A stretch of DNA of 64,000 nucleotides from Gracilariopsis chorda (Eukaryota > Rhodophyta > Florideophyceae > Gracilariales > Gracilariaceae). The DNA lies in assembly GCA_003194525.1 (NCBI GenBank), contig NBIV01000043.1:186001-250000 (forward strand), read 5' to 3'. The notes under the pieces are model-generated. The model was not told the origin of the DNA, searched no databases, and worked only from the letters and a program-made list of their open reading frames with translations. The stretch's first letter is position 1; every line of letters begins with the position of its first letter. The position numbers and the translations under genes were made by a program. Below are positions 161 through 45,213 of the stretch, in pieces.

Positions 161-3100
161 TCATGCAGCTTTGTTCCGCCGCACGTCGCGTTCCCACACG
201 CGTAGCCGGTCCACCATGTTCGGCTTCACCAGTTGGCGGATCGACAAAACCGTGAAGTCCAGCACGAAGCCGCCCACCATGATGACCGCAGCGCTCAGAT
301 AGAACAGCGGCGAGCTGAACAACGCCACCAACTGCCCCTCCATCGGGTAGTCCTGGAACAGCGAAATCGACAACGGCACCACCGCCACGTACACCCCCAG
401 CGACAGCGCCATGAACAACAGCACAATCCAATTCAGCGTGTGCGAATGCAGCAGAATCTTAAACAGCGTCATCAACGTCACAATCGTCGAGTTTGCCAGT
501 CCAACCAGAAACAGCCCACTGTCCCTTCCGTCCGAGAACCCAATTCTCAAGTACCCGAACAACAGGTACACCCCAAAGAACACCACCACCGCATGCCACA
601 GTCCGTACAACATGGTGTACTCCAGAAAGCTCTTAATCGAAAACAACTTCTTATCCCGGTTCGACCCATACACAGACGGGAAGCGCAACGCAGTGCCCTC
701 ATCAACATCGCGTTCGAAAATCCCGTACAGAAACGGCGAAGCCGACGTCACAATCACATTAAACGCCGCCGAAATCCACTGATTATTGAACGTAACCCCG
801 CTAACAAACGCAAACGGCTGGAACAGCACCTGAGTCAGCGTGAAGAAAATGTTCTTGTAAAAGCTAAGGTTGATCATCCCAGCCGTTCGAACCACGGAGA
901 ACCGCCCATGCAAAGCGGTCAGTCTCAGCAGATGCTTGAATTCACCCACTGCATAGTCCGCCGATCGCGCCGCCTGAGTGCCTTCCTTCCCATAGATCCC
1001 AACCCCGACATGCGCTTCCTGAATCATCGACACGTCGTTTCCACCATCCCCAATCGCAAGCGTCACAGCCTTCCTCTCCTCGCGCACAAGACGAACAACA
1101 AGCGCCTTTTGCAGCGGCGTCACGCGACAGCAGATCACCACCTTGGCATGGTCAGACAGCGCCATGAACAATTCGGCATGATCTTCAATCGCAAAGCTCA
1201 GCGATTTGCCGTCGATAATAATTCCAACTTCCTTTTCCTCCACCTTCTTCTTATCTCGCAGCGAGAGCCGACGAGCAAAGTTCGCAATAGAGGAGCTTCG
1301 AGCTCGTTCAAACGAGCGAGGTTCCTCATCGAGAATGTGGTCATCCAACGTACCACTCAGCTGACTTCGAACCTCCTTCGACGTCGCGCCCTTGATATGA
1401 CGCACGTCCATGTCGCGGTCAAGTAGATTCGCAGAGTACCCAATATTCTCCGCAGTTTCACGCTTGTCACCCGTCAGCACCCACAGTTTCACTCCAGCCT
1501 CGCGCATGAACTTGATTGTTTCGGGTACCTTGTCCTGCAGCTTATCCTCCACAGCCGTGGTAGCAATGAATTCAAGATCGGTCTCAATTTCCGCACTCAA
1601 GGCAGACACCTTGGCTTCACGATCGTCCAGCGAGTTACTGGCCTCCTGGAACCTCGCAAACCACGGTTCAAACTCCTGCGGTGTAAAATCACGTTTCGCA
1701 AACACAAGCGTTCGCAACCCCTCTTTGGCAAACTCGTCAATGTGGTCTTGTACCAGTTGCATGTCAAGGTTGTTCCTCAACAGGGGAAGCATGATGGTAT
1801 CCGCGCCCTTGGTGTACATTCTGATCTTCCTGTCGGGACATTTGAAAATCATGCTCATCCTCTTACGGTCAGAATTGAACTCCAGTTCGGCCAGCGCGGT
1901 GTACTCTTCCTCCGTGCCAAAGTGGTCGATCACAAGGGTGTCAATTGTGCGTCTGAGCAGGCCGATACCGTACTTGCGAGCAGAGGTGACCAACGCGACT
2001 TCATCTGGACTCTGACCCTGGTATGAAGGCAAGCCGTCGTTGCTATCATCATCGCTTTGATTGGCATTGGCAGCGTCAGCCGATTCAGTTTTCTTCGAAT
2101 TCCGGAAAGCACGCATCTTCTTCTTCTTCTTTCCATCACTGTCGTCATCGTCAAACAATGGTTCCGAACCTTCTGATTTGGGTTCCGGAACAACGCTATG
2201 ACACAACGCCATAGCAAGCAACAAAAGCTTGACAGGCTTGACATCTTTCTTAACAGCGTTGTGCATGTCGCGTCTCTTCTTACGGATGTTATAAACATTG
2301 CCGCCAGCAGAACATGCAATATACCTCATTTCATTTTCCGTAAGCGTGCCAGTCTTGTCACTGAGAATATGTTCAATTTCGCCAAGCGTCTCATTCAAAT
2401 TGGTAGCACGAGCAGCGACGGATCTTCCCTTAGTCTTCATTCGATAATCAGCCGACATGAACAAAGCCTGTATAACGCGGATAAACTCCAAGGTGACAAA
2501 CAGCGACACTGGAATGAACGTGGAAAACAGAATCAAGAACGTTCCCAGACTGCGAGCAAACACACTTCCAGAGCCTCTGTCACTAAATTCATCCATGTAC
2601 CATTGCCCCTCCGCCTGGTTGGCCTGCAGAGCGGCGGCGGCGCCCGAACAGGCAGATATGAGAATGGCGAGAATGACAAACAATATAAGCACAATCCAGT
2701 TGAGTTTCTTCTCCACATTTCCCATCTTGCTTGGCGGGTTTCTCATGTTGAGAGCGACCTTGGTGTCAAAGCCTGTGTACACAGCAAGGCCGTACACATA
2801 ACTGGTGTTTCTCAAGATGCTGCCACGAAGAAGTAGGTTGGAGGCAGAAAGTGGGGCCGGTTCATGTCCGGAAAGCAAGATAGAGGCGTCAAAATCGTAT
2901 AAAGCAGTTGCAGGTTGTTGTGCGCGGACCTTCCCATGCAGACTGAGCAGTTCTGAGGGGTACTTGAGGTCTGAGGTCGGGGCTGCACAAAGCGTTCTCT
3001 TGAGATTTGACTCGCCGTCTAGATTGGCGGTTGAGACGTAGGCAATACCGCCGTCGGTGGAAGAGTGTAACAAGACCATATCGCAAGGAAAGACCTGCCC

Positions 3101-3700
3101 CTTTCGCAGAAAAACAATGTCACCGACCGCAATATTTCGCGAGGCTACGGTTCGATGTATCTCCGGTTGCAAGTTGAGTGCGATCAACCTATCGCTGAGA
3201 GACTTTGAAACGAGCGAAACTTTACGGTCTACAGCGTCGACACTCTCAGGCCGTCTAGCCATAATGATTTGCTTCTCAGAGTTTTGACGGCGGTCTTCAG
3301 CCGCTCGTTTGCCGTCCTCATAAACATCTCTAGCAAAGCCAAAGCCCACAACGACCAAAAGCGGCAGCACACTAGCGGCCGGGGTGGAGGGAGACACGCC
3401 CGGCACGAAGGAGACAATGGCAATGACAAGGAAGTAGAAATTAGCCACTCTTCGAAACTGCTCGAAAAGCGCCTTTGGAATCATGTTGAGCGCGTTATAC
3501 TTGGCCGTTCTCAACTGGTTGGACGGGAAATTTCGCGACGCATTTGTGGAATGATCGTTGAAACGAACGTAGCGAATGCCGGATTGTTGGTCCTTCTGCT
3601 CTTCGGGGGTGAGGATTGAGGTGCGCTTTGAATAGAGGGAGCGGGAATGAGAGAGCGACGGTTGAGACATGCGCTGTTGCGCATCGTCTACAGGCTCCAT
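161..3700 (-). CDS. P4-type ATPase, putative phospholipid flippase
   Basis: This 1,179-residue protein is a complete P4-ATPase, a membrane pump that moves phospholipids from the outer to the cytosolic leaflet at the cost of ATP. Visible motifs are DGES (residues 228-231, actuator domain), PVSL in membrane segment 4 (397-400), the phosphorylation site DKTGTLT with Asp448, KGAD (631-634), TGD (743-745) and GDGGNDV (884-890). Paired hydrophobic segments lie near 82-120 and 335-410, and about six more follow residue 935. A run of acidic and lysine residues (about 516-530) is inserted in the nucleotide-binding domain. The length is normal for the family and the frame has no interruption, so no introns are needed. 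The start was taken at the first Met, which leaves a normal Ser-rich cytosolic N-terminus. P4-ATPases usually need a CDC50 beta subunit, and none is encoded in this window. The lipid substrate cannot be read from the sequence. Confidence 0.97.
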   Translation of the reverse strand: MEPVDDAQQRMSQPSLSHSRSLYSKRTSILTPEEQKDQQSGIRYVRFNDHSTNASRNFPSNQLRTAKYNALNMIPKALFEQFRRVANFYFLVIAIVSFVPGVSPSTPAASVLPLLVVVGFGFARDVYEDGKRAAEDRRQNSEKQIIMARRPESVDAVDRKVSLVSKSLSDRLIALNLQPEIHRTVASRNIAVGDIVFLRKGQVFPCDMVLLHSSTDGGIAYVSTANLDGESNLKRTLCAAPTSDLKYPSELLSLHGKVRAQQPATALYDFDASILLSGHEPAPLSASNLLLRGSILRNTSYVYGLAVYTGFDTKVALNMRNPPSKMGNVEKKLNWIVLILFVILAILISACSGAAAALQANQAEGQWYMDEFSDRGSGSVFARSLGTFLILFSTFIPVSLFVTLEFIRVIQALFMSADYRMKTKGRSVAARATNLNETLGEIEHILSDKTGTLTENEMRYIACSAGGNVYNIRKKRRDMHNAVKKDVKPVKLLLLAMALCHSVVPEPKSEGSEPLFDDDDSDGKKKKKMRAFRNSKKTESADAANANQSDDDSNDGLPSYQGQSPDEVALVTSARKYGIGLLRRTIDTLVIDHFGTEEEYTALAELEFNSDRKRMSMIFKCPDRKIRMYTKGADTIMLPLLRNNLDMQLVQDHIDEFAKEGLRTLVFAKRDFTPQEFEPWFARFQEASNSLDDREAKVSALSAEIETDLEFIATTAVEDKLQDKVPETIKFMREAGVKLWVLTGDKRETAENIGYSANLLDRDMDVRHIKGATSKEVRSQLSGTLDDHILDEEPRSFERARSSSIANFARRLSLRDKKKVEEKEVGIIIDGKSLSFAIEDHAELFMALSDHAKVVICCRVTPLQKALVVRLVREERKAVTLAIGDGGNDVSMIQEAHVGVGIYGKEGTQAARSADYAVGEFKHLLRLTALHGRFSVVRTAGMINLSFYKNIFFTLTQVLFQPFAFVSGVTFNNQWISAAFNVIVTSASPFLYGIFERDVDEGTALRFPSVYGSNRDKKLFSIKSFLEYTMLYGLWHAVVVFFGVYLLFGYLRIGFSDGRDSGLFLVGLANSTIVTLMTLFKILLHSHTLNWIVLLFMALSLGVYVAVVPLSISLFQDYPMEGQLVALFSSPLFYLSAAVIMVGGFVLDFTVLSIRQLVKPNMVDRLRVWERDVRRNKAA

Positions 3701-5121
3701 TTCGGCGGGTTGGGCGGGAGCGAGGGGGGTGGCGGGGGAGGTGGGACGCGGTGAGAGCGAGCCGCGACCGTGTTGAAGACGCCGCGAGGAGGGGAGGGGG
3801 CGATGACCTGCCTCAGTGCCGGGCGGGGGTGGCGCACTGTTTTTTGCACTGTTGGTGGCGGATGCACGTCAGCACAAAGCGCAACTCTTTTTTGCGGCGC
3901 GGCACAAAAACCTTCACGCGACGACTCCAGCGAGGACCGTTTGGGGCCGCAACAAGCGGCGCCCAATAACAGAGCGCATCTTGTCTCCCCTCCTTCGAAA
4001 GAAGGACAATGTTGATTGGTCCATTCCCACACCGTTGGAAGCGCCATCCCAGCGCACTACGCTCTGCAAAGCGCGTCGCACGGCTGCACGCTGCGCCACG
4101 CTACTTACGTAGATACGTATACGCTTGGTAGACTGAACAGTTGTATTTGCGTGCTCCATGTCGTTGAGGCCGTGTCCGAGTTCATGACGTTGTCAGTGTA
4201 TATCTCAGCCACACTAACCGACACCCCGCCCACAGAGCGTCCCTCCTCCCCGCCATATTCCGCAACTGCCTTTGGAAACGCCTCCCTCACAACCCCGTTC
4301 ACGACTCTCTTTCTTCCGCCGCTCGTCGCGAAACGCTTAAAAAATTTCGTCCTCCCCGTCGTCAACCGTGGTCCAAAGCCTCATCAATTAACAGAGCCTT
4401 CTCTTCCGCCGGATGCAACGCTGCGTACCGCACAACTGCCTCAGATTGCGCGAATCTCTCGCTGTTGATACGCAGCGCGGGTACGAAGGTACACGTTTGC
4501 ATGCTGTCTGATTTGAGTATAGTTCCCAGTCATCCTGTCCGCTGCGCTCATCCGGGACGGTAACGCCGCCGTTCTGAAACGCATGTCTAATCGGTTCTGC
4601 CCGCGCCTGTTGTGCATTTCGCAGTCGCGTCAACTGCTGTGTTAATCAGACTTGTAGCACAGCTTTACATTTTATAACACTGTCGAACTTACTCGGTACC
4701 CAAACTTCGTCAACTTCAAAGTCGTCATTGTTCCTGCCGTAGCAGTAGGCAACCATCGATTACTACCGCCGAAAGCAGTACGCATATGATGAACACGCAC
4801 CCATCGATAACTATCGATTTCGCAAAGCTGCCATTCTACCTTTGTCCAAACCATTATTCTTGCACTCTGTCTTCCATCATACCAACCCCACAGCCCTCCA
4901 TTCATTCCCACACACACTGCTCCTCGCCCACAACCAACGTCCAACCACCGCCAACGTACAACATGTGGCACTTCCACGTCACTGGACAGCACTCTCAATC
5001 ATGGAGCCAAAACCGCCACTCATACAATCCTTTCCACTCCACTGCTACACTGACCCCCCTTCCCCCACCCTCTCTTCGAAAACGTCACTGTCACTGCTGC
5101 CACCGCTTTCCGACACACGTC
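3701..5121. other. Intergenic region upstream of the P4-ATPase
   Basis: No supported gene lies here. The first 400 bases next to the ATPase start are GC-rich with G-runs and C-runs and probably hold its promoter and 5' leader, but no TATA box stands out. The open frames in this stretch overlap on both strands and are low in complexity. A small palindrome, ATCGATA-ac-TATCGAT, lies at 4803-4818. Confidence 0.6.
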
Positions 5122-5124: not shown

Positions 5125-5154
5125 GAGAGGATCCGAGAAATCACAGTTTCACAG
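5125..5154 (+). repeat. Harbinger left terminal inverted repeat
   Basis: The arm begins GAGAGGATCCGAG and matches the reverse complement of 9257-9286 at 29 of 30 positions. The target copy AAT lies immediately to its left. Confidence 0.93.
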
Positions 5155-5388
5155 ATTTCCCAGACCCCAGCAGTAGCGACATTCCCTTGCTTAGAATCTA
5201 CACTGCTCAAAAGTTACACGTAGGTGCAAGGTTTCTTTTCATGTGCACTTGTCAGTATTCATAACACGAACAGCTGCAACGTTTCGGCCACCGTTCTGCT
5301 TAGATACTCAACTGTTTCGGTTTGTTGAGAATGACATTCTACATAAAAACCGACGTCTTTCGCACAATACATTCGCATTAAACACAAC

Positions 5389-6100
5389 ATGCAACGCTCT
5401 CGTATGGCAATTGCAAATCTCGTTGCACTCGCACCATCTCGAAAACGTCTCTCTCCTGATTCCAACCACACAGACCAAGAGGAAGATTCGTGTACCGACG
5501 CAGAAGAGTCAGGTCATGAAAGAAAATATGAGGCACAAAACTACAGCGTTGAAGACGAAGAGAAACTGCTGGATATTGTCCATAAAGTGGATCCAATTGG
5601 TCAGAACGGATGGGCCAGAGTGAAAGTAGCATATGATGAATACGCCAAGTGTAATTACAAATCTTGTAGAACTGTGTCAAGTCTGAGGAAGAAGTATGAT
5701 AAATTAGTTTACACACCAAAACTTACTGGCGACCCAACATGTCCGTTATCAGTGCGTAGAGCCAAACGAATTCAAAATGAAATTTTCGCGAAGATGCATG
5801 CTACAATTTACAATAGCAACCTGCAGAAGAAAAGAAATCAGAATACCGAACGCGAATTAGAAGCTCAACCAGAGAAATTCAACGATAGACGTACCAACGA
5901 CCCAAATTCAATTCAACCTATATTCCAGGGGTCTTCGAAAACGATGGCGTATTGAAATGAACAAAACACTTCAGGAAATATCATATTCTATTCGCATTCT
6001 TGCCGAGAGCAATGTGAAGAATCGAGAGTCGTTGGTCACAAAAGAAAATTTAAACGATGCTATTGAGGCCGCAATAAGACGAATTCACCAGAACATGTAA
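5389..6100 (+). pseudogene. Harbinger Myb/SANT-like DNA-binding protein
   Basis: In Harbinger transposons a second protein with a Myb/SANT-like fold binds the ends and helps the transposase enter the nucleus. The first frame (5389-5955, 188 residues) has an acidic, Ser-rich N-terminus. About residues 48-115 form a trihelix-like domain recognisable by the spaced pattern GQNGWARV, YDEYAKCN and SLRKKYDKLV, followed by a basic helix. This resembles the oomycete-type Myb-like family found next to such transposases, which is an inference from pattern. Near 5940 the reading continues in another frame through a coiled-coil-like tail ending at the TAA at 6098-6100, so there is either a one-base shift or a small intron that I cannot define. 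The gene faces the transposase, as in related elements. Confidence 0.7.
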
Positions 6101-6299
6101 CAAACTTGGTATGAACTTTTCACTGGCAGAAAAGCGACACTACAGGCAGTTGAGACAACTCTTCGTTCCAAAATCTTTTCATGAGGGTTGCCCATAGGGT
6201 TCCAGATTGTCCCAAGTATAGAAGAGACTGTTTGTACAATGATTATCGCTCACATATTTGTGGGAAGTGCTTTCAACGGCGACAGTGAATTCTGAGGCG

Positions 6300-6867
6300 C
6301 TTGGGCGCGAAATGGAGAAACAGCAAAAGCGGTTTGGATCGAACCGCGAACGATTGTGAAGGGATACGGCGGAATGTTTGAGTTGGCTTAATAAGGGCAT
6401 TTCGAAGATGAGATTGAAGTGATCTACCCTTTAGGAACCATTGGGGTGCGCTGGAGATCTGGAGTTGATCAACGCGGAATCGGAGAAAGTTCGAGATCTG
6501 GCGCTACAGATCTTAGTGTCGTATAGGGAGGACGCTGGGCTAACGGCGATCAGTGCTTGCGCGAATAGCGGAGAGGAAAAATGTGTGGCACGATGCTATT
6601 CTGCTTCTCTTTCCTGCTGGAGGAAGAGCGGATGCCACCGTTTGTGTTTGCAGACGAGCTGAATCAGTGGCTGGACCCAAACAACGAACTGAAGATCATG
6701 AGCATGATGTTTGAGGATGCAGGGAAGGAAGAGTCGCCGCAGAGTTTTGTGATCACGCCCAAGTTGCAGCTCATCATTCCGCTGAGCAGATCAAGAGGCA
6801 CATCATCTTCAATGGCATGGTGAGAAAAAAGGACGAAATACTGGTGGCTGTACAACCAGGTGTGTGA
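6300..6867 (+). pseudogene. SMC5 C-terminal fragment, captured in Harbinger
   Basis: SMC5 is an ATPase of the SMC5/6 complex that acts in chromosome repair and segregation. This fragment covers the end of the protein: a short coiled-coil piece (near 6300-6360), LGCAGDLELI (from about 6438), LQILVSYREDAGL, the decayed ABC signature region read as NSGEEK where the family has SGGER, and the Walker B region FADELNQWLDPNNE where SMC5 has DEINQGMDPxNE. It then reads FVITPKL and the last residues HIIFNGMVRKKDEI, with a stop at 6865-6867. The family match is by motif order. The text runs through all three frames with shifts near 6578 and 6780, so it cannot be expressed as SMC5. The N-terminal nine-tenths of the gene is absent. 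It reads toward the next fragment, 406 bp downstream. Confidence 0.85.
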
Positions 6868-7273
6868 CTTGTTGTGAATGGCAGAGCGCCCCGTCTCGTC
6901 TCGACGTTCATGGCAGTCTGCGTGTTGGGCGCATTAAGCCGCCATGTCATGGCTGGCGCTGATTGGTCCGCTGCGTGGCGCTAAATCTGCGTGGCAGCAA
7001 ACGCTGTGCAAGTGACGGGACGTGCGATACCGAGTGTTTGCTGCATTCTGGTGCAAAGTCGGGAGGGTGCTGCAAACACATGGCCCATTTGCGAAGAGGT
7101 TCCTCTTTGGCCGCTGTTGTTCTTTACCGTTATTGCATTTCGCCCGAACGTGCTTAAAGCAGCCATGGCTCTCCCATGTTCGCGCCGGCGTCACCCTCCT
7201 TCCCCCTGCTCACGCCTCTTCGTCTCTTCTTTCTCGCTGTTTGCCCGCTCGTTCTTTGTCTCCTGTCAAACCG

Positions 7274-7912
7274 ATGCCGTTCGCTATGACCCACACTTCC
7301 GCCTTTTCTAGAATGCGTCGAAAGCAGTTTTCACAACTTGACCGCTCTAACGTCGTCTATTTCGACTACAACGGCCCATGTTCCGTGCCGAAGTCGCTCC
7401 CTGAACAGCACATATCAAATATTTCCTCCAACGGGTATGGTATCCCGCATTCGGCCTCACTGCCGTTATCAGCTGCCATCGCCGCCTTTCATGGCGCCAA
7501 GACAACGGTATTGCGCTTCTTCAATGCGCAAGATCACAAATCATCTTCACTGCAAATGCCTCCTCGGCCATTCACCTCGTCGCGCAAACCTTTCCTTTCG
7601 ACCGCCATTCTACGTTATACCTCACCGCCGACAACCACAACTTCATGCTGGCGCTCAGGGAGACGGCCAGATGCCTCGTTACAGAACCATGCTAATTCCC
7701 CTACAATCTCGCCTAACGCTTTCGCAGCCTCTTTCATATCTCTTACAAACATACCGCCCCCACTGCTTCGCTATCGTTGTTCGCCTATCCAGCGCAGTCC
7801 AAATTTTCTGGCGTTCGGCATGATTTGCACCTCGTGCAGCACGCCCACTCCAAGCAAATACACGTCAGAAGGAGCCGTACACAGTCCTTATTTCAATGTA
7901 TCCACCTTTCTT
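7274..7912 (+). pseudogene. Molybdenum-cofactor-sulfurase-like N-terminal fragment
   Basis: The family is a PLP-dependent class V aminotransferase that adds the terminal sulfur to the molybdenum cofactor. The fragment starts at a good Met (7274) and reads MRRKQFSQL, VVYFDYNGPCSVPKSL and IPHSASLPLSAAIAAF. After a frame change it reads IFTANASSAIHLVAQTFPF, then TLYLTADNHNFMLALRET, and after another change FAYPAQSKFSG. These match in order the family's opening dimer and PLP-site segments, including the FAYPAQxNFSG hallmark. The fragment ends before the PLP-binding lysine and abuts the 3' end of the Harbinger transposase. It uses at least three frames, so it is a pseudogene. It lies on the same strand as, and just downstream of, the SMC5 tail, which suggests that one contiguous chromosomal segment was captured. 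Confidence 0.82.
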
Positions 7913-8910
7913 GTGCGATAGTTAGAAAGGTGACAGGCCACGCTGAGCAGTCTGCCTCGTTTACGGGAGTTGGATGGAAGTGTTGTACTCAAGCGGCGAA
8001 ACGGTGCACGCAACCCCCGAACTCCCCACTCTGCACTCTGCCGCTCGCTCGGATATAACCGTTGAAGCAACAACTCTATTGCGGCGCACTCGTCGGACTT
8101 GGGAATAGTCTTCATCTCATTGAGCTTTCGTGCTCGCAGAACCTTTCCATTTGTCACCCGTGTATTGTTGACAAAGGCGCTATCACCCAGAATAGCATAA
8201 CCAGGAGGTGTGATCGTATCGTCTTTTAGAGAGGGCCAATACCGTCCTGAAACATAGGCGAGTTTACTATCATGCCAACTTCCCGGAAAGTTTAACGCAG
8301 CGTGTATTATCTCGGCCTTGAAGTTCCACACAAGAAGGTTCGTTACCTCAACCTGCTGCGTGAAAGCTTGAAAATACGCATTCTGCGCATCCATATTGTC
8401 GAAACTAACACATTTGAAACGCACTCCGTCTGTCATATCGAACACTCCCCGCAGTGTATACCCATACGATCGATACTTCTGCAACAGCTGTGTTGATTCT
8501 TCCATTTCGGCGACAGTTGGCCATACGATTCGAAACGCCTAGTAGATTGGGTCTCTCATCACATCCCACAGAATCTCCAACGAATAGTCTAACCATTCCG
8601 ATAGTGAACTTGGCGTGATTCCAAAAGCTCTGCATAGTTCGTACATCACATCTTTTGTTCGTATGTACGAAATTGCAAGCCCCAGCAAGTCGTCTGAGTT
8701 GAGGAGAGGCTTTCGACCACGGGAAGAAGTAGTATGGTGAAATGGAAAACCATTGTGCACTTCCCATATTCTTTTGTCAAACCATGGAAGAAGTTCACCA
8801 AAGAATAAGAATCGAGGCACCGATAGCGCCACAACAAACTGAGAGTCATCGCCGTTTTTCAGAAGACATTGCCATGAAGTTTCTTGGCAAAGGGGGGTGT
8901 TGTATGCCAT
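7888..8910 (-). pseudogene. Harbinger DDE transposase, one in-frame stop
   Basis: This is a transposase of the DDE_Tnp_4 type that cuts and pastes the element. Reading from 8910, the N-terminal half contains a helix-turn-helix-like stretch (LLGLAISYIRTKDV, ITPSSLSEWL). One TAG at 8539-8541 interrupts the frame, which then resumes without any shift to 7888, giving about 340 codons in all. The catalytic acids can be placed at FDMTDG (first Asp), ILGDSAF (second Asp) and AEWGVRGL (Glu). FPGSWHDSKL and the ending FRRL are also typical of Harbinger transposases. The stop falls just before the first catalytic Asp, so a full enzyme could come only from readthrough. The 3' end overlaps the captured cofactor-sulfurase fragment by a few bases. 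Confidence 0.88.
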
Positions 8911-9256
8911 GTCTATTGTACTTTAACATTCGGCACGACTTGTTGTGCGACGGTCGAGATTGATGTATTACAAAGAGAATGTTGGTTATTGCAACGGCAA
9001 GGATGAGAATAAGCTCTACGTCTGAATCCATGTGAGCTTTGAGAAAAGAAGATTTCATCACATTAGAGTTAGTCGATGATCATTTATGCGTAAAGAGAGA
9101 TGGAGTGCTTGTTTTCTTACTCAAATCTTGCTTCCCATTGCACCATACAGCAATTGCGAAAGTGTGGCGTCTAAGTGCTTGGGGTCACAGTTTCCACACT
9201 TTCAGGCAACAAGACGAGCATTTCTAGCCTCTCTGATTCGCTCCATGTTTGTGAAA

Positions 9257-9286
9257 CTGTGAAACTGTGATTTCTCGGATCCTCCC
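9257..9286 (-). repeat. Harbinger right terminal inverted repeat
   Basis: This is the reverse complement of the left arm with one mismatch. It is followed directly by the target copy AAT at 9287-9289. Confidence 0.93.
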
Positions 9287-21257: not shown

Positions 21258-23195
21258 TTGAGCTCTTATGAATACGCAAGGAATTTCAACGAGCAGCAGT
21301 ACGAAACTTATCGTGAAACCACGATTGGAATCAGACTACTCGCGGATGGATCCAAGTTTGATATTGCATTTCAAGAAGCAGTGCAGATCTACAGCACACC
21401 CTCCGAGCTACGAGGTCTGGTTGTCACTCTATACCAACAAGGCGCACACCCAGAGAAAATGGCCGTCGAAAACTGGGAGGCGCTTTATAGCGACATACAT
21501 TCAGGAGATGAGCAGCAACGAAAGCAAGAAATGTATCAAAGTGTGGTGGAGATCTCAGACCAGCACGGAGGACGACTGCTTCCCGACCACAGCTTCTTCT
21601 CTCAACACTTACAGCAGTATGATGCAGCATTGACTGACGCGAATCGAGCTACAATAACTCGAGACGCGCGAGTGGTACGAAATGCGTCAACGTTGCAATC
21701 AAGGTACGCGACCTTAAAAACTCGCCAAAGACAAGTCATTGAAACCGTCATTGCCGCATTGTAACAAATGCAGGCACTGCAGGAGCGAACAAGCACTCCT
21801 GGAACCGTTTTCTTCCTGCAAGTATCTGCAGGAACCGGAAATACATACGTGCTACACCTCTTTCGTGATATCGCTGAGTTGGAAGGAATGCTCGCTGAAA
21901 TAACTGCTACAACAGGCATTGCAGCATCTTTGTACGTGGGTGGCTGCACTTTACATAGCCTGCTCAGACTGGGTGTAACGGATAAGGACAGTACAAGCAG
22001 CACTACAGCCACTTTGTCAGAGTACGGTCCTCGATCTCAACGTGCAGACATGCTACGCGAGATGCAACTGCTCGTATTGGATGAGGCGCCCATGCTTTCG
22101 CAAAAGCTTTTTGAACTCATGGATGCGTTGCTCAAAGATCTTCGCTGCAGTGGAATGGAAAACCCGCCTCCGTTTGGGGGCTTGACCATCGTTCTATCTG
22201 GCTACTACTCCCAGCTGCTTCCAGTGGTTCCACAGGTGTACATGGAGGCCCAGCCAAGTGGTAATGTGAGACGATTGTACACAAGCATTCTCAAAACATT
22301 GCTTGGGAAGAGTGATCTGTGGACTTTGTGCTCGGTTCAAGTGCTGCATCTTACCGAACAAGTATGCCAAGCCAATGATCCGGCATTTTCGTCGCTGTTA
22401 CGTTCCATTGGACGAAACACAATATCAAACAACGCTCCAGTACCACTCAGATCTACTGGTGGCATGCAAACTGCCTACCAATTCCTGTGGAAGTGGCTCA
22501 CAACACGACGCAAGGAGGATGTGGATCTCAGCAAAATCCTCACTGCCTCCACAAACCAGTTGGTCGACGAACATAATGCGGCAGCGTTAGATCTGCTTCC
22601 TGTTGATCGCTCTACTCTTCCGTCAGCGACAAACATGCAACCTGACGGTCTACAGAACTCACAGCCCGACGTCATCAACACTTTGGTTCCCGAGTTTGCA
22701 TATCAGTATGCGCGTACTGGATTACCACCTCATAACTTGGACTTGAAGACTGGTGTGCCGGTTATCGTCATTCCGAACGTGCTGCATCCTGCTTTGGTCA
22801 ATGGAGTGCTGTTCGTAGTCGTATATTTCCATCAGTTTACGATGCAGTTGGCTCGATTCGACCAGAACGGACAGGTGCTGGAACGACAACTCTGGCATCG
22901 TATCGACTTCGAGTTTTCTTTTGCAGACATTCGCATGATTCGAAGGCAGTTCCTTATTCGTCTTGCGTTTGCAGCTACCGTTCACAAAGGACAAGAAAAG
23001 ACCTTTGATGGCTTGGTTGTGGATATTCCATCCAACTTCTTCTGTGCCAGTCAGTTGTATGTCTCATTGTCGCGCGTTCAAAGGAACGACCATGTGCTGC
23101 TCGTGCATCAACCGCAGCTTACACCCACGAATGCGCACACAATTCATCCCATGCCTGTGGCCATCGTCAACCCAGTTCTGCCTGAAGCCATTTAG
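21258..23195 (+). pseudogene. Helitron 1 Pif1-type helicase region
   Basis: This SF1 helicase domain is C-terminal to Rep in Helitrons and unwinds the donor strand. Visible are Walker A as VSAGTGNTYVLHLF (the usual Lys is Asn), Walker B as LLVLDEAPMLSQKLFE, motif III GLTIVLSGYYSQLLPVVP, and the late motifs LAFAATVHKGQEKTFDGL and QLYVSLSRVQRNDHVLL. One TAA at 21762-21764 splits an otherwise open frame of about 645 codons. With the Walker A lysine gone, ATP hydrolysis should be lost even if the stop were read through. Confidence 0.9.
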
Positions 23196-23343
23196 TTCTG
23201 CATCCCTCCACAAACGTTATCATATTTCTTGCGTTCTTCATTCATTGAATTAAACTACTTGCTTTTCTGCTTTTACTTTCTCCACCCTTTCTTTCTTCCC
23301 ATCACTTTTTTTCACTCCTTTACCGCGGCACGCAGCGCAGCCC

Positions 23344-23367
23344 GCGGCCGAAGGCCACTTCCTCTTG
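23344..23367 (+). other. Helitron 1 3'-terminal hairpin and terminus
   Basis: GCGGCC-GAA-GGCCAC at 23344-23358 is followed by TTCCTCTTG, ending at 23367. The same hairpin-plus-CTTG layout closes the other Helitrons at 15844 (minus), 15405 (minus) and 54932. Confidence 0.85.
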
Positions 23368-24700
23368 TGTTTGTCCACTATTTGATTTGTTGGCGCAACA
23401 ATCAATCGCTTGAGCTTGATATCTTCCTTCTTTCGTGTTGTAAAGCGTTTCCACAGCAACCTGTACGCTTCTTTTATATCTTATGTAGACATGATTGAAA
23501 GCATTGGAGATGCTGAAAAGGGCACAAGACAAATATTGACCAAAACTTTGGCGAAAATTGATTCATCTTGTTCACAAAGCTGTTTTGTAGGGCGATGAAT
23601 TTTGACTCTTCTGCCCCAAAGCTCGCAATAGTACCATGGAAGCTCCTGTAGGAGACGATCTGGTGTAGCAAGAATTGTTCCATCTCTTTCGGATACTTTT
23701 CTTCTTCTTGGAACCACTGGATGCAGTTACATATAGTAGCTGCCCATAACTATTAACATGCCTCCACAGTCTTTGGTAAAAAATCTTGAGCTCTTCATCA
23801 TAGTTTTGTCAATCTTAAAGAGCATTTTCGGGCACATTCAAGCTTCATCAACAACCGCTAAAACAGTCTTTCTGATTAATTCTACTCTCTGTGATCGTAG
23901 TCCGTACTTGGAAAGTGTCTGACGCTCTCTAATTTGCGAAAATTTGTTATCATCGACTCCCAATCCATGCAAACTATGCAAAGTTCTTCCACCTTCATAT
24001 AGTGCAGCAGCAATACCTTTGATTGCTGTCATGAGCACCAATAGCCTTTCGGGCTTAAGGATATCTCTCCGGAAAGATAGGAGATAGGTCCTCCCTGTTC
24101 CCACTCGTCCTTGTAAGAAGAAAATGCTTGCGTGTGTGTTGAGTTTTTCACCTTCTCTCATTCTCTCTCGGTATCGTACTTCTCTCATTAAGTTGTCAAA
24201 CAATTGCTTATGGCCTTCTGTCAGATCACCATATCGCTCTTTCAACCTTCGCCTGGACCTCCAGGCAGAGCTGCGACGTATTCGAGCTCGTTTCTCTGCT
24301 AATTGGAGTACGCTCTCTCTGAGATGAAGTTTGATACAGTATAATGAAAGAAGGGACAATTTCTGATAAGAAGACTACCACGTCTTTCCCAAATCTCAAA
24401 ATTTCTTCGAATTAATTCCTCTCTTCTTTTTGCTCTGTTTTCCTCGGTTACATCTGCAGTTAGAGCTCTTTCGTGCTTTCCAATCACAGTTTTAGGACTT
24501 ACCCTTAATGAAAGGAAGTTGCCTCCAAGTAACGTAGTTCAGCAGGAGTAGAATGGTATCTTACTGCCTCATCAAAAGCCTTTTTGTACTCGTCACCATA
24601 GATATATAGTCCACGGGCTACTGCCGCTTCTCTATAGGTCGAGTAGATTTCGCACCAAACACGTTTCGAATCATCAAAGGGGCTGAAGGCAGAGTTCATG
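23368..24700 (-). pseudogene. Helitron 2 helicase, N-terminal part
   Basis: From 24700 downward the minus strand reads ARGLYIYGDEYKKAFDEAVR, then LQGRVGTGRTYLLSF (Walker A with Arg where Lys is expected), GIAAALYEGGRTLHSLHGLG, KTVLAVVDEA (Walker B), and WKRFTTRKKEDIKLKRLIVA, ending IVDKHK where Helitron 1 was inserted at 23367/23368. Stops and shifts are frequent. The order matches the other two Helitron helicases in this window. Confidence 0.82.
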
Positions 24701-29720: not shown

Positions 29721-30261
29721 TGTAGTATAACCGAACACGGTCAATGACCAAATGGGTAGTTCGTGTGGACCACGGCTGTAGGGAGCCCCGGGTGGGCTCG
29801 ACCTAGAAGGGGAAAAGAGGGCTACCGGTAGGGTCTGTGGCCGCACCAACCACTAGAGGTGCAAGATAGTCGACTAGTTCTACGTAACAGTGTCGTAGTC
29901 GCTAGGTATTGTGACTGGCGGACTAGTAATACCTGATAAGATCTTGGATAAACAAAATGGTTGAATGTAAAAACTAGTTGGTATCAGAGTTATCCAAGAG
30001 GTGCGTACCGTCTACCATGAAGGGGGAGGAGGCTGACGCTCACCTTGAAGGTGGGCGAGCTCGACTCTCCGTTAACATGGCACGCTCCATTTGCCACGTA
30101 TGAGGTACAGCCTAGTGGTGCAACTCAGTACTGTAGTTAACAGTTAGAACTATTTCTAAAAGTTAAAGTTAAATATTCGGACATACTGCCCTGGTCCAAT
30201 CACCCACGTGGCACACCGAACTGGTATTTTGCACACCACTTTGGTACCGAAACCCACTATA
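29721..30261 (-). repeat. Gypsy 3' LTR
   Basis: It is the partner of 40820-41360 with the same length. On the minus strand it ends in CA. The plus strand contains TGGTATCAGAG at about 29982, which equals a common initiator-tRNA primer site but lies inside the LTR. A few bases at the outer edge are ambiguous because both copies end CTATA. Confidence 0.88.
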
Positions 30262-30665
30262 GAAGAGGCCCCGCTCCTACATGCAGCCACGAGCCCGTGG
30301 ATGCCACTTTAGTCCCAAATGCGTTGTTCTGTCCCGGTGTGCACCCGTTGGTCAGTACCCAAGCGGCGCTTGAGCACCAGCCTTAGTGCTGTCCCCGTCA
30401 GCATCGACCAAAGCGACCAACGTGGTTTCGTATCCCCCCCCCTGCAGCCTGCCGTCCTTTGCCGTTTGGTCAATTTCCTCTCCGTCGTATCACCGGGTCG
30501 GTCTCCTTGCTCCTTCTTCGTGGCGCGTGGGACATTTGAGGCTACTTTCGTGATTCCTACTGGATCGATACTGTCTCCGTTCTCGTCCAACCGTGACCAT
30601 TTGGTATTAGCGCAACACTGCTTGGTCCCAGTGCAACGCTGTCTGCCTCTGCTTCCGACCATTCG

Positions 30666-31133
30666 GTGATAATCGCGACGCCTCCATGGTCCTTGGCTCT
30701 CAATCCCAGCGCTTTTCACGGCCATTGGGGTCATCTTTTCCGTGGACCATTGCAACATGGACTGACCATCATGGTTCATCAACATGCCAAGAAGGCTCCC
30801 GTACCAAACTCTGAGACCCATAGGGTGGATTTGATCCCAATGGAGCCGATTGGCGCTCCCTTACCCAAATTGGTTGGCGCCAACGACGAGTCGGCGCATA
30901 CCAACTCTGGTCCGCGTTCTCGGTCACCTGGAAGGTTTTCTCCACCCCACTATTTAGGCGGGTCGGATAGGTTCCCAACCAAGTACCGTCGCAGTCCTCT
31001 CCCATCACCGGTCACCCAGATCACCATGTCTGGTCGTGGTTCTCGCAGCCCTCGTGGCTCCCGCACCGGGCCTCGAAGTGAAATAGCCAAGTCAGTAACA
31101 CGTTGGCGTGGGCGGGGGCGTGGTACTTCGTAG
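30666..31133 (+). CDS. Antisense ORF 1 in gypsy, Arg/Ser/Gly-rich
   Basis: This 155-codon frame lies opposite to pol, just inside the 3' LTR. Its C-terminal half is rich in Ser-Arg and Gly-Arg (SGRGSRSPRGSR, RWRGRGRG), which looks like an RNA-binding tail. The product is unknown. Whether it is expressed cannot be told, and the element is a fossil. Confidence 0.3.
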   Translation: MIIATPPWSLALNPSAFHGHWGHLFRGPLQHGLTIMVHQHAKKAPVPNSETHRVDLIPMEPIGAPLPKLVGANDESAHTNSGPRSRSPGRFSPPHYLGGSDRFPTKYRRSPLPSPVTQITMSGRGSRSPRGSRTGPRSEIAKSVTRWRGRGRGTS

Positions 31134-31378
31134 ACCCTGCCGCTTCCAAACCAAATTGGTAGCATGCCCGCTCCCGCTTTGGCCAAAGTGGTAAACCTAG
31201 TGGTTACGCGAGTTTCTCGCTGGGACTCACGTGCTACATGACCCATATGTGGTTACGGCGATCACCCACGATACCTCCCATATGAATGAATTTGTCCTGC
31301 TCCCGTCGGACCTCCGTCGGGAGTTGTTGCAAACCAATTCCTGGCCGATTCCGGTAAGCGAACCCCCTGGTCAACAGT

Positions 31379-32251
31379 TTGAACACGCGGATTTTTTTGC
31401 TGTACTTCTCTTGGGAAAGGTGGGACAGTCACCCTTTGGCAGTCATTCCGCACCACCCACCCAGAAGGGATAAGGAAATACGCCATTTTCCGGGTCTTCC
31501 CAGCTGCTTCTTCTATCGGGCTCACCATTCACCGTTCAGCTACTTCATCCCACCAACCATTCCTGGTGATTTGCTTTATCTCAGCAGTGATTTTGAGTTC
31601 CTGTACGTCAGACGACTCGTTGATGTCTTCTTCTCTGCGGGTCCTTCACCAGATTGGTTGAAACTGGACCTTGATCTGGTGGCCTCCGAGTCCCCTTATG
31701 ACAGGATTCATTGGCTTGACCGTAAAAGGTGGGATGGAGACGACGCATCGGAGGCACGCATTCGTCACCGAAACAGTTTGGTCAAGACCATGCATGGTTA
31801 TCACCTCATTGAGTACTTCTCTCAGAGTACTGAGGCTCGCCGACAATGGTACGTGCAGCTAACAGGCTGGAGAAATGAGTACGAAGCACCGCAGTGGTTA
31901 TCGGTTCCAACCCCTCCGGTACTGGCCTATTTTGGAAGCCTGAACCGGGAGGTTAGTCATTGGTACTACACCTTATGGTCCGTTGCGATGTGCGAATGGG
32001 CGTTTCTGGTCGCCCTGTTGGCTTTGGAAGCCGGCTGTCACGGTATCACATGGAACTTGCGTTGCCCCCAGACGGCCTTCTATACCCATTGGTTCCAACC
32101 AGTTGGTCGCCTCTTCCGTTTAAACATGCATTTGATTCAGTTGATCCGCCGTCTAGGTATCTCCGACATCGTCACCCGTACTGGTTACACCGAAAACCAC
32201 TTGGACAACTACCTCCGTGCTGCTGAGAATCACCGGTGTGGTCCTGCCTAA
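31379..32251 (+). CDS. Antisense ORF 2 in gypsy, unknown 290-residue protein
   Basis: This frame of 290 codons reads on the strand opposite to gag-pol. The composition looks like a folded protein, with many Trp and Tyr residues (PDWLKLDLDLVA, WYVQLTGWRNEYEAPQWL, CEWAFLVALLALEAG). No known domain is recognised. Antisense ORFs at this position are known from some plant Ty3/gypsy families, for example Grande and Retrosat-type elements, so an accessory gene is plausible. Confidence 0.45.
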   Translation: MNTRIFLLYFSWERWDSHPLAVIPHHPPRRDKEIRHFPGLPSCFFYRAHHSPFSYFIPPTIPGDLLYLSSDFEFLYVRRLVDVFFSAGPSPDWLKLDLDLVASESPYDRIHWLDRKRWDGDDASEARIRHRNSLVKTMHGYHLIEYFSQSTEARRQWYVQLTGWRNEYEAPQWLSVPTPPVLAYFGSLNREVSHWYYTLWSVAMCEWAFLVALLALEAGCHGITWNLRCPQTAFYTHWFQPVGRLFRLNMHLIQLIRRLGISDIVTRTGYTENHLDNYLRAAENHRCGPA

Positions 32252-32352
32252 GTGTGGGAAGTGTGGGATCATGATCGTCAAAGGGTTCCTCACCGAGTGA
32301 GCGAGCTCTGCCTGGTGACGACCACATAAGGAAAGAAGCCCAGTATGGGTAT

Positions 32353-33078
32353 GTGGTCGAGACTCCCGAAGTTCTCACCCCTGCAATTTCTATGGACCTT
32401 ACTTCTGGTCAGCGCCCTCTTGTTCCTCCGTCGAACACCGCTCCCGTACCGCATAGGGGTCCATTCCAACCAATTAGTCTTGTAAGTAATCCAATGGGAG
32501 GGGGTAAGCCCGTTACTGCCCCTGAGGTGACGTACACGCTAATCCATATCCAGCATCTGTGCGTCATCCACCTTAACCATCCTGGTCCGTGTTCGATTCC
32601 GGAAGCGCTCACCCTTTTGAAAGCGCTTATTCCGCGTCATGCGACTTATGTGGAAACGTTAAACCAACTTGGTGGATTCTGGACCAACTTCCAGGCGGAA
32701 TTGTACCGTGCAGTCACTCACCACGTTGGTGAGCTTTCAGACCTTTTAAAGGAAGCAAGCTCCACTGGGGATCAACTTATGGGTACCTTTGCAGGTCCGC
32801 TTCTTGCATCTGGAGTTCGGTACTGGGTGGGGAATGTGCTGATGCCCGCGCCGAGTATCTCCGCTCCGGGTCCTTCTGCAACGGTCCCGCCCAACTATGC
32901 AAGTGCTCCACCTACCACTCAGGGCTCCAACCCCAATGGGTCTCGCCGTGTGGGCCCAGTGGGTATTTGGGGACATGGCAGCGTGGGTGCGCCGCCCTCC
33001 TCCAGTCATCCGTCTGGTACCGCTGCTGGACCCGCAGGTGGTCCGAATTTTACTCCAATGATGGAGGTTTTTCCGTAA
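32353..33078 (+). CDS. Antisense ORF 3 in gypsy, Pro/Ser/Gly-rich tail
   Basis: A 241-codon frame follows ORF 2 closely. It has a helical middle (PEALTLLKALIPRHATYVE, VGELSDLLKEASSTGDQL) and a low-complexity Pro/Ser/Gly tail ending at 33078. Function unknown. It may form one transcript with ORF 2. Confidence 0.4.
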   Translation: MVETPEVLTPAISMDLTSGQRPLVPPSNTAPVPHRGPFQPISLVSNPMGGGKPVTAPEVTYTLIHIQHLCVIHLNHPGPCSIPEALTLLKALIPRHATYVETLNQLGGFWTNFQAELYRAVTHHVGELSDLLKEASSTGDQLMGTFAGPLLASGVRYWVGNVLMPAPSISAPGPSATVPPNYASAPPTTQGSNPNGSRRVGPVGIWGHGSVGAPPSSSHPSGTAAGPAGGPNFTPMMEVFP

Positions 33079-34150
33079 CCAAGCGGTCGATAGACTATCT
33101 TAGTTCACCCCTTTGTGGCCGATAAACCTACTTTCATCCTTGCGTAACCTCCTTGCCTTCTCTTTCCTGTTCTTTCTTACCAAGACGGTCTAAGCTCATG
33201 GAGCATCTCCCGCACAGGGAGTGGCGGTCTCGGAACCTTTGGGTGGGACGTGCAGGACACTCTTCTACGTGGTTTCACGTGCGCGTAGCGCATGAACCCT
33301 GTGGTGGTCGGCCAGCAATGATACCCACGCGGTTTACATACCCTCCTTGGGCGTATGCATCTAAGCGTGGCACCGAGCCTTGGATGTTATTGGCAAGGCG
33401 AATCAAAAAATCACGTGCGCAAATTACCCCCTCAGATGGTGCCAAAAACCGCATTTCACCTTTTTGGTCCTTAGCTCCGAAACGCTGGTGTTTCAGAGGC
33501 TGAGAATGGCCAGTTTGCGCTCCCTGCACGGTCAAAATACTTAGATTTTTTGAGCGAGCGCGCGCGCGCGCGTCACACACATTACTGTTTACTGAATCGG
33601 TTACCAAATCGCCGTCGTGTGCATAGCGTGCTGACTAGCTCGGTGAATAAGAAACTCCCAATTTTTTTGAGTTGCATATTGGCGGCCTTCGCGCATCGGG
33701 TAGTCGCGTGCACCGCGCGCGTGCACGGCGCGCAGCCAAACTGCCTCCCTCTCCGTGGTCCGTGCACTCACCAAGTGGTTGGGTCACATCTTCCTTAACG
33801 GTGCTCTCTTCCATGTTCGTCTTCTTCATCTTGAGCTTCGTATGAGCGAGCGCATCCAGGGTTGTTGTCCTTATGGTCAGTTCCCATTTACTATTAGGTT
33901 ATTAGTTAAAGTTAATACCCCAGCGGTCTAGGTCGCGATTGAAATCCCCTCCCCCCTTCTAAGAGTGGTGTACCACACCACTCAAGGGTGAGGCAGGGCC
34001 TGTCCTCGCTTGCGCCAATACCGCACTATGAAGTTGCTCGGGATATGACCAGGTGGTTCTAACGTATCCGATTCGGACGACCATCCGTACCACCTTACAC
34101 GGTACCGAATACCTCGAAGGGTGTGCTCATGACCAGCAATGCTTTCAATT
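33079..34150. other. Gypsy internal non-coding stretch
   Basis: Nothing coding is supported. A short GC dinucleotide run lies at about 33553-33571 and a GCGC-rich patch near 33710-33735. Confidence 0.5.
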
Positions 34151-34155
34151 GCACA

Positions 34156-37100
34156 CTACGTGGTTACCGGTGGGTGAGATTTTGCAAACGGATCTCCAGA
34201 AGTCTGATCTGTCTGTACCAAGTTTGGTGAAGGTATCACGACGGGGCCAAGGTTGGTAGGGTCGCTCGTAACCGCGCCTTCCCGGGGAGGGGACGAGTTG
34301 AGTTGTACCACAGGTGGGTCAATGTGTGGGCCTTTTCCCGATGTAGCCTGGGAACCTACGGGTTTCCTGGCCACTGGGGGTTGTGCCGCCGTCAGTTCCT
34401 GAACGGACCTCGGGGCCTTTGTCACGCGATCGACCGAAATGGTATTTTCCAACCCGTCCATCAGTACCGTAGCGGTATGAGCGTCCACTCGAATCACCTT
34501 GTAAGGTCCAGCAGCCCTAGGGATGAGTGTAGAATTGATGTCCGCATCAATTCTAATGTCGTTCTTCTCCTCGGCTGGCGTGGGCCTGTGACCATCAGGT
34601 GGAATGTCGATAAAGACACATTCCCCTGCGACCACTTTGGTGAATTATTGTACCTTCTGGTCATAGTGCTTCTTGTACCGCTGTTGGGCCTTCGTGTTTC
34701 TGGCTCGTGCATGACGCATGGCTGCACGAAACCTTCTAAGGATGTTTTTCTTGACCTGTTCAGGAGTAGTTCCACCTGGAGGGTTACTGTTTCCCGGTTC
34801 AGTGTCAAATACCATCGCTCAATGCGCACGCGACAAAAACAAATCGAATGTTGTGTGGACTGCGTAGTCTGGTGGACTTGCAGGTTATACGCGTATGTTA
34901 ATGGTTGAACGTACTCGTCCCAACTAGTTTGGTGTTCCTCCACGTAATGTCAGAGTCTTTCTACGAGGGTCTTATTGTACCGTTCCACTTGACAATTCGT
35001 CTGGGGGTGGTAAGCGGAAATGAAGTAGTGCTTCACACCCAGCATGGTATAGACCGTGTAGAATAACTTCGATGCAAGGTTCGAACCGTTATCGGTAAGC
35101 AAGTAGAGCGGAGCACCATAGGGTTATACCCAATTGTTAACGAACGCCTTCGCTAATGTGGTCGACTTTGTATCCCTCAGAGGTATCGCGCGGGTCAACT
35201 TCGAAAACCTTTCGGTGATTACAAGTACGTACTTATTACCCTTGTCGGTCTTCGGAATTGGCCCTATCAGGTCTATGGCAATAAATTCCAACGGGCCCGC
35301 TGCGGGGAAAAGCTTCAGGTACTTCCTGTGCTTTCGCAAATCACCTCTGGTCTTCACGCATGATGCGCACTGACCTACGATGGTATATATACCGTGGGTC
35401 ATATGGGGCCAACAAAAAATTCCTCCTTAGAGTATATTATAACCAAATTGCTCCTGGATGACCTGCAAGGCGAAGGTAATGCAAGAGATGCAAAACCCTG
35501 GACCGTAGGGATTCTGGAACGACCTTTTGGAGGGACCCATCCAGGGGGATCGTCTCACCAAATAACGATTATGGTCGATGTCGAACTGTGATCCAGATGT
35601 CCCGATGTGGTCCGACAACCTTTTGCAGTACTTGTCCTTGGCTTGAACTTCTAGGAATTTCTCTCGGGTAATTAATGCGTCCATTCGGTCATTCTGATCC
35701 GCGACCAAAATTGGTGACTCTCCCCGTGAGGGTTCTGGTTCCGATTCTAGAAATATACCGGTGATGGTTTTATCACCCATTTGTCCGCTCCTACATATGG
35801 TGAAATAGGAGATTTCGTCCTCAAACTCTTTGGTCTCTAACCCATTGGTGTTAAGGCGCGACATAGCGTCAGCCACGTTGTGATTTATACTTGGACGGTA
35901 CTGGACATCGTATTCGAATTCTAATAGGCGGAGTCTCCATCGGGCTAGCCGTCGGGAGGCGTCCGCCAGTCCGATTATCCAACTAAGAGCATCGTAATCT
36001 GTCCTTAGGGTAAACTTAACACCATACAGGTACGGTCGAAGCATGAACATGCTCCACACTACCGCTAGGTACTTCTTCTCGGTCACGGTGTAGTTTTGCT
36101 CTGTCTGGGACAGGCCTCTACTCCAATAACCAATTGGTAACTTATCCCCGTTCTCTTGGTTCTGCATGAGGTAGCAGCCAATTTGGGCGTCCGAAGCATC
36201 GGTATCGAGGGTTTAGGGTAGACCAGTTTTGGGTATTGCCAATATTGGTGAATGGAGAAGGGCAGCTTTCAGCTGTTGGAAGGCTTCCACTTCTTCAAAC
36301 TCTAGGCAATCGAAACGATCTGGTTGACCTTTCATAAGTCTTCGGTTCAGGGGTGCCGCAAGTTTTGCGAACCCCTTGATGAACCTACGGTACACATTGC
36401 AAAGATCTATAAAGGAACTAATATCCGTCTTGGAGGTAGGAATAATTGCCTCCTGTACCGCACGGATATTCCGCTTGGTGCTCTTCAACCTTCCAGGGCT
36501 TATAGTGTATCCCAAGTACTCCACTGTTTGGTCAAAGAAGGTGCATTTCCTCAGTTTGAGGGAAACGCCCGCCTCTACCAGGAGTCTCAGTACTGTACCA
36601 ACATGGTCAAAGTGTTCTTCTATCGTTCGGGAGTAGATGATTACGTCATCTAAGTATACCAAAGCGGTGGTCCATTTAACCTTAGATAGGATACTGTCCA
36701 GCGCTCGCTGAAACGAGGCTGGCGCATTCTTCAGACCAAATGGCATTCGGAGAAACCTGAATAAGCCAGCGTGACAAGTAAAAGCGATCTTGTATCTGTC
36801 CTCTTCGGGTATTTCCATTTGCCAATAACCACTGTTGGTATCCCATGTGGTAAACATTTTCGCATCCCCTAGGGTATCAATGCACTCGTCCATTCGTGAT
36901 ATTGGGTAAGAATCCTGCACCGTAACGGAATTTAGTTTTTGATAGTCTACACAGAACCGCATACAGCGATCACCTCTCTTTTGGACAAGGACCACTGGGC
37001 TCGCCCACTCCGCATTTGCGTGTTCGATTACCCCCTCACGGAGCATGCGCTCCACCTCCTATAGCTCCACCTCACGGACCTTGGGACCAGCTCGATAGGG

Positions 37101-38321: not shown

Positions 38322-38398
38322 ACGTAAACCACTTGGTTCTGGAGGGACTTCCAGGTGTAAACGGTTGGGGGTGGCCTCTACTCCAACCGTTCGCCGTT

Positions 38399-40686: not shown

Positions 40687-40819
40687 TAAAAAAGTGGGTC
40701 ACAGCAATTGTATCCTAGTGGATTCCAAAGACCAAGCAGTATTCAAATTTCGGTTCCTTCCCAAAATGCTTCGTTCAAAACCAAATGGTACTTCACAATT
40801 CGAGTTCGGGAGACCAAAA

Positions 40820-42269: not shown

Positions 42270-42509
42270 GGGAAAGGGCTAAACTACACAACGTAGATAG
42301 TGTAGGCGAGTCAGCGCGCATTTGCCCCAATAAAAAGAGAAAGTCAGTGGGCACGTGCCACGGCGAGCTGCACAAGTGCTCGTGCCACTTGAGATCTTAC
42401 TGTAGCCAATAATACGCCCTTATTTTGGATTTCAAACAGTAGAACCGCAGAGTCAGGGCATTCCCTCTATCCCTGCTTTCTCCGGCCGCCAAGCCAGCAT
42501 AACGTAAAT
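42270..42509 (+). repeat. MULE left terminal inverted repeat
   Basis: About 240 bp, starting GGGAAAGGGCTAAAC and ending ...AACGTAAAT. It matches the reverse complement of 49537-49775 with scattered single changes and one or two one-base gaps. Confidence 0.93.
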
Positions 42510-45210: not shown

Positions 45211-45213
45211 GGA

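What the first reader, a model, noticed from the sequence alone, without database searches (positions are those of the whole stretch)
6100..7912. A Harbinger transposon has captured a two-gene piece of chromosome
Inside the inverted repeats of the 4.2-kb Harbinger element lie, on one strand and 406 bp apart, the last part of an SMC5 gene (through its own stop codon) and the first part of a cofactor-sulfurase-like gene (from its own start codon). The simplest reading is one acquisition of a contiguous 1.6-1.8 kb segment spanning the border of two neighbouring host genes, with the intergenic promoter included. Pack-type capture by Harbinger elements is much less documented than by MULEs or Helitrons, and capture of a gene border is rarer still.
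Basis: partly seen in the sequence, partly recalled or inferred. Interest (0 to 1): 0.78.

Follow-up and report, generated by a model that had tools for sequence, protein, structure and literature searches.

The report
Harbinger transposon carrying two host-gene pieces
A decayed cut-and-paste transposon in a eukaryotic genome carries, between its own two genes, the tail of one cellular gene and the head of another, most simply one copied stretch of chromosome; such captures are already known in this transposon superfamily, so this is an attractive but not unprecedented example.

Summary
A 4,162-bp PIF/Harbinger-type element lies at 5125-9286: TIRs alike at 29 of 30 bases, AAT on both sides, a DUF6818 ORF on +, a DDE_Tnp_4 transposase on -. 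Between the 3' ends of these genes lie decayed remains of the SMC5 C-terminus (6447-6867 secure, weakly from 6324, ending at TGA) and the N-terminus of a probable molybdenum-cofactor-sulfurase-like protein (7304-7851 aligned; candidate ATGs 7274, 7286, 7313), both on +, 406 bp apart. Both are far above chance: SMC5 E=6e-8 in one uncorrected frame; sulfurase frameshift-tolerant score 254 against at most 56 in 218 control tiles. No internal TIR or nested element was found. One capture of a gene border is the simplest reading but is inferred: no host genome is held, and no donor or second copy was found. The rarity claim is too strong: host exons and introns in grapevine PIF elements (Pifvine-3) and Pack-PIF elements are published. 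Because it carries a transposase gene, this is a transduplication in a (formerly) autonomous Harbinger, not a Pack-TYPE element as defined in PMC8903248. Likeliest origin: template-switching gap repair. Lesion counts hint, not firmly, that the insert moved with the element.

The parts
5125..5154 (+). left terminal inverted repeat, flanked outside by AAT
5347..5955 (+). DUF6818 ORF (stop to stop), probable second (Myb-like) Harbinger protein
   Evidence: Pfam DUF6818 E=3e-10; Myb-like role inferred
5861..6100 (+). probable continuation of the same ORF in another frame after a frameshift, ending at a stop at 6098-6100
   Evidence: frameshift inferred, no relative available; 0 Pfam families for this piece
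6324..6867 (+). SMC5 C-terminal pseudogene fragment with its own TGA stop; 6447-6867 secure (about 2 frameshifts), 6324-6446 weakly aligned (3 in-frame stops); left edge uncertain
6868..7273 (+). 406-bp spacer, GC 57%; presumed host intergenic region with the 5' leader of the second gene
   Evidence: host origin inferred
7274..7851 (+). N-terminal fragment of a probable molybdenum-cofactor-sulfurase-like gene, ATG candidates 7274/7286/7313, 3 frameshifts
7888..8922 (-). DDE_Tnp_4 (Harbinger-type) transposase ORF with one in-frame stop
9257..9286 (-). right terminal inverted repeat, flanked outside by AAT

Best explanation
A once-autonomous PIF/Harbinger element acquired about 1.5-1.8 kb of host chromosome between the 3' ends of its two convergent genes. 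The segment ran from inside the last part of SMC5, over the intergenic region, into the first part of the neighbouring cofactor-sulfurase-like gene. The likely mechanism is repair of a double-strand break inside the element (spontaneous or left by excision) in which synthesis switched to the host locus and back, leaving host DNA as filler. The fragments then decayed without coding function. Shown: the element, the two fragments, their order, orientation and decay, and the absence of a recognisable internal TIR. Inferred: one event rather than two, the host adjacency, the repair mechanism, and (weakly) that the insert was present at the last transposition.
For: TIRs, matched AAT flanks, transposase and DUF6818 ORF enclose the fragments. 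Tail-then-head order on one strand, with SMC5's own stop and the sulfurase alignment starting near the N-terminus of its bacterial relative, is what a gene border would give. A GC segmentation finds one GC-richer block (best 6260-8104, likelihood ratio 40), although it overruns into the transposase. Third-position GC of the fragments (0.74 and 0.61) resembles the window's P4-ATPase gene (0.62) more than the transposase (0.48) (61 and 85 codons only). Lesions: 8 in 1,174 bp of captured coding sequence against 2 in 1,741 bp of transposon coding sequence, binomial p=0.013, but only 5 in 999 bp against 2, p=0.066, if the weakly aligned 5' part of SMC5 is left out. The insert sits at 0.45 of the element's length without it; breakpoints biased to internal regions are reported for gap-filled Pack-TIRs (PMC8277862, passages).
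Against: No donor locus and no second copy, so contiguity is untested. The gap-filling model predicts preferential capture of nearby sequence (PMC8277862), yet no donor lies in this 64-kb window (self-BLAST; 218 control tiles). AAT is not the usual TAA/TTA. The lesion excess is not significant on the secure part alone. The two junction zones share no word of 9-14 bases, though this is not a true microhomology test because the exact junctions are unknown. The left 170 bp (6101-6270; GC 42%, CpG o/e 0.39) differs from the rest of the insert and is unexplained.
Confidence: 0.66

Rival explanations
1. Two separate captures or filler pieces (SMC5 tail and sulfurase head) that happen to lie head-to-tail on one strand.
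For: No donor locus was available; gap repair could switch templates more than once (inference).
Against: Needs two events to give one strand, one gene's end and another's beginning; the spacer shows no repeat elsewhere in the window by self-BLAST at E<=1e-3.
Confidence: 0.15
2. Host DNA was inserted into, or rearranged within, an already immobile Harbinger copy, so the insert never moved with the transposon.
For: Only one copy is known; PMC8277862 (abstract) reports that single-copy Pack-TIRs in animals arise mostly by transposition-independent gap filling; the lesion excess in the fragments is not significant on the secure part (p=0.066).
Against: With all frames counted the fragments carry more lesions than the transposon genes (p=0.013), though the donor could already have been a pseudogene.
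Confidence: 0.14
3. Two neighbouring Harbinger copies trapped chromosomal DNA between them and the outer TIRs moved as one element.
For: Model described for Pack-TYPE elements in PMC8903248.
Against: No internal TIR remains at up to 3 mismatches, and each transposon gene is present once, one on each side of the insert.
Confidence: 0.04
4. The fragments belong to a separate nested element.
For: None convincing.
Against: Among 14-base end pairs tried with left ends 5950-6299 and right ends 7830-7959, the best had 10 of 14 bases and a 3-bp repeat; others had 8 of 14 with 4-5 bp.
Confidence: 0.01

Closest known systems
Pifvine-3 PIF elements of grapevine (PMC2528002; passages seen)
   Same: A PIF/Harbinger family with transposase-bearing copies whose members contain sequences matching host exons and introns; 3-bp TSD, TIR 23 bp
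   Different: There the extra DNA is a long 5' region, in some cases shared by multiple copies and matched to host sequences; here it lies between the two transposon genes, in one known copy, with donor unknown
Zm-Pack-PIF and other Pack-TYPE elements (PMC8903248; passages seen)
   Same: Host coding DNA between Harbinger-PIF TIRs
   Different: Pack-TYPE elements are non-autonomous by definition there; this one carries a transposase gene
Pack-TIRs of animals (PMC8277862; abstract and passages)
   Same: Internal host filler in a TIR element, attributed mostly to gap filling with template switching
   Different: 'Harbinger' has 0 occurrences in that main text; whether any contain gene borders was not checked

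Membership tests
PIF/Harbinger superfamily | Harbinger-type DDE transposase | tested here: met
   DDE_Tnp_4 5.8e-13, model positions 2-158 of 158; one in-frame stop. DDE_Tnp_4 as the Harbinger transposase domain is recalled
PIF/Harbinger superfamily | Second protein with SANT/Myb/trihelix motif (definition in PMC8616336) | tested here: inconclusive
   A second ORF matches DUF6818 (3e-10) but no Myb/SANT model at E<=1
PIF/Harbinger superfamily | Terminal inverted repeats | tested here: met
   29 of 30 bases matched, 2 sites in the window
PIF/Harbinger superfamily | 3-bp target-site duplication, mostly TAA or TTA in grapevine PIF | tested here: inconclusive
   3-bp repeat present, but it is AAT; one given 3-bp match has a 1 in 64 chance at even base frequencies
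Pack-TYPE transposon (PMC8903248 definition) | Captured coding DNA between TIRs | tested here: met
Pack-TYPE transposon (PMC8903248 definition) | Non-autonomous; no transposase match | tested here: not met
   DDE_Tnp_4 match in the same element
Single capture of adjacent host genes | Donor genes adjacent with matching spacer | not testable with these tools
   no host genome; nothing confirmed in genome and viral contigs
Molybdenum-cofactor sulfurase | N-terminal class-V aminotransferase fold of this branch rather than a SufS-type desulfurase | tested here: inconclusive
   Aminotran_5 6.4e-10; far closer to 2 unannotated plasmid ORFs than to NCBIfam sufS (3.2e-6) or PDB desulfurases (best 2.4e-4); branch motif recalled; C-terminal domain not in the fragment

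The most novel reading that the evidence does not exclude
The captured gene border is used by the transposon: SMC5's 3' end serves as terminator for the DUF6818 gene, and the captured intergenic promoter drives an antisense transcript across the transposase gene that limits its activity.
Probability: 0.04. Interest if true: 0.6.

Novelty: new member of a known kind. Interest (0 to 1): 0.36.

Why it matters
In the passages I read, host-gene capture by PIF/Harbinger elements is described for flowering plants. A clear case in another eukaryote (the host here is unidentified), inside an element that keeps its own transposase gene and spanning a gene border with its promoter region, would show that DNA-level template switching can move whole intergenic regions. 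It gives one testable prediction: SMC5 and a cofactor-sulfurase gene should be neighbours in this host.

Tried and rejected
Host genome search: none held. Other element copies: self-BLAST of the window shows only the TIR pair for this element; TIR DNA pattern in viral contigs, 0 matches; transposase halves in viral contigs, 0 confirmed of 7 and of 4 candidate stretches. Donor loci: sulfurase peptide in genome contigs, 0 confirmed of 47; SMC5 alignment, 0 of 242 in genome contigs and 0 of 72 in viral contigs. Those collections hold prokaryotes and viruses, so these misses say little. The metagenome collection was not searched because its stated cap is 0. PDB gave no relative for the main transposase piece at E<=1, nor for the first SMC5 frame alone (5 weak hits at E<=10, none SMC). 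NCBIfam on the transposase halves and DUF6818 ORF: one sub-threshold unrelated hit, E=0.088. Rfam at gathering scores and tRNA scans of the window: 0. A truncated transposase C-terminus was suspected from recalled relatives, but no relative could be fetched, so it is not claimed. Paper searches, seen as listings unless stated: 606 papers, 20 listed; Chondrus crispus + Harbinger, a recalled guess at the host; one listed; 37, 20 listed; 6; 1, on Helitrons; 1; 1; 0 each.

Full report
What is there. The element spans 5125-9286 (4,162 bp). Its TIRs match at 29 of 30 bases, 28 of them in a row, and a 22-base TIR pattern occurs only at these two places in the window at up to 3 mismatches, with a shuffle mean of 0.00. 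AAT flanks both ends. On + a DUF6818 ORF (Pfam E=3e-10) runs from 5347 (stop to stop) and seems to continue in another frame to a stop at 6098-6100. On - a DDE_Tnp_4 transposase (E=5.8e-13) runs from 8922 to 7888 with one in-frame stop. The two genes converge, and the host fragments lie between their 3' ends.

SMC5 fragment. The uncorrected frame 6569-6820 matches PDB chain 9lwi_I, SMC5 of 1,101 aa (human from recall), at E=6.1e-8. With frames joined by eye the match extends to residues 911-1074 at E=3.9e-18 (all 5 hits at E<=0.001 are SMC5), and the reading then runs to TGA at 6865-6867. The match is secure from 6447 and weak from 6324 to 6446. Pfam SMC_N remains below its curated cut-off (19.1 bits joined, against 40). 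Frame joining inflates scores, so I used a control. A frameshift-tolerant alignment of the plain DNA to another SMC5 stretch (from PDB chain 8i4v_A, copied) scores 147, while the best of 218 control tiles scores 46. The tiles are 1,132 bp, half-overlapping, from both strands of the window, leaving out + strand tiles that overlap about 6000-8100. The fragment has frameshifts near 6592 and 6777 (a third call at 6506 I take as an edge effect) and, in the weakly aligned part, three in-frame stops (6357, 6420, 6432).

Sulfurase fragment. Single frames are weak (Aminotran_5 E=0.052 and 0.3; no PDB hit). Joined, Aminotran_5 is 6.4e-10, and tblastn finds 2 plasmid records, E=5e-18 and 2e-17, at 35.7% and 32.6% identity over 91% of the query. 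The DNA aligns to those proteins from 7304 to 7851 and to 7848 with scores 254 and 226, against control maxima of 56 and 61, with three frameshifts in each alignment. NCBIfam gives cysteine-desulfurase matches (best sufS 3.2e-6), and PDB gives desulfurases and a related aminotransferase (best 2.4e-4; 22 sequences at E<=1). The assignment to the molybdenum-cofactor-sulfurase branch rests on the closer match to the two plasmid ORFs and on a recalled FPAQSNFSG-like motif that they share; neither plasmid record has an annotation over the match, so the subfamily name is likely rather than shown.

Gene border. ATGs at 7286 and 7313 are also possible, and the aligned homology begins at 7304. The spacer has GC 57% and no repeat elsewhere in the window by self-BLAST. 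Tail-then-head on one strand makes one contiguous capture the simplest reading. It was not tested: no host genome is held, and scans of prokaryote and viral contigs gave nothing.

Age and mechanism. Counting all frames I find 8 lesions in 1,174 bp of captured coding sequence and 2 in 1,741 bp of transposon coding sequence (binomial p=0.013; 0.026 with one fewer). On the secure part alone it is 5 in 999 bp against 2, p=0.066. The counts depend on frames chosen by eye, and the DUF6818 frameshift has no relative to confirm it. So there is only a lean towards the insert having ridden in the element while the transposon genes were still under selection; a donor that was already a pseudogene would look the same. 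No internal TIR or convincing nested element was found. A filler near the middle of a TIR element (0.45 of its length) fits gap filling by template switching, as described for animal Pack-TIRs (PMC8277862; abstract and passages). Against it, that model predicts nearby donors and none lies in this window. The two junction zones share no word of 9-14 bases, but the exact junctions are unknown, so microhomology between donor and element is untested.

What is known. Grapevine Pifvine-3 elements contain sequences matching host exons and introns, in some cases shared by multiple copies (PMC2528002, passages). Pack-PIF elements are reported in maize and rice (PMC8903248, passages), and a review counts Harbinger among the main sources of Pack-TYPE elements in Arabidopsis (PMC8616336, passages). 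So the kind is known. My searches (listings, partly capped) showed no title that I recognised as describing this case; I read passages of four papers only.

Noticed in passing
window 42270-49775: A Mutator-like element: 240-bp inverted repeats 93% alike, 9-bp flanking repeat CTCAACCTT, and a MULE transposase domain in the ORF 46150-46860 (E=8.6e-9).
   Followed up: partly
window 42605-43300: By eye, residues like a Ulp1-type protease in the ORFs at the left of the MULE; Pfam found nothing for 42605-43177 (E<=0.01) or 43159-45207 (E<=0.1).
   Followed up: partly
window 29721-41360: Direct repeats of 541 bp, 93% alike, around a reverse-transcriptase and RNase H region on - (35427-37058): probably an LTR retrotransposon; no convincing TSD was found.
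   Followed up: partly
window 21765-24624 and 52921-54172: PIF1-like helicase ORF (2.5e-29) next to a 1.25-kb segment repeated in inverse orientation at 78% identity about 28 kb away; possibly Helitron remains.
   Followed up: no
window 61555-63357: Copia-type gag and pre-integrase domains in one ORF near the right end of the window.
   Followed up: no
window 161-3868, - strand: Phospholipid-translocating P-type ATPase in one uninterrupted 1,235-codon stop-to-stop reading frame, suggesting an intron-poor eukaryote.
   Followed up: no
window 6101-6270: Stretch between the DUF6818 stop and the SMC5 homology with GC 42% and CpG o/e 0.39, unlike its neighbours; origin unexplained.
   Followed up: partly
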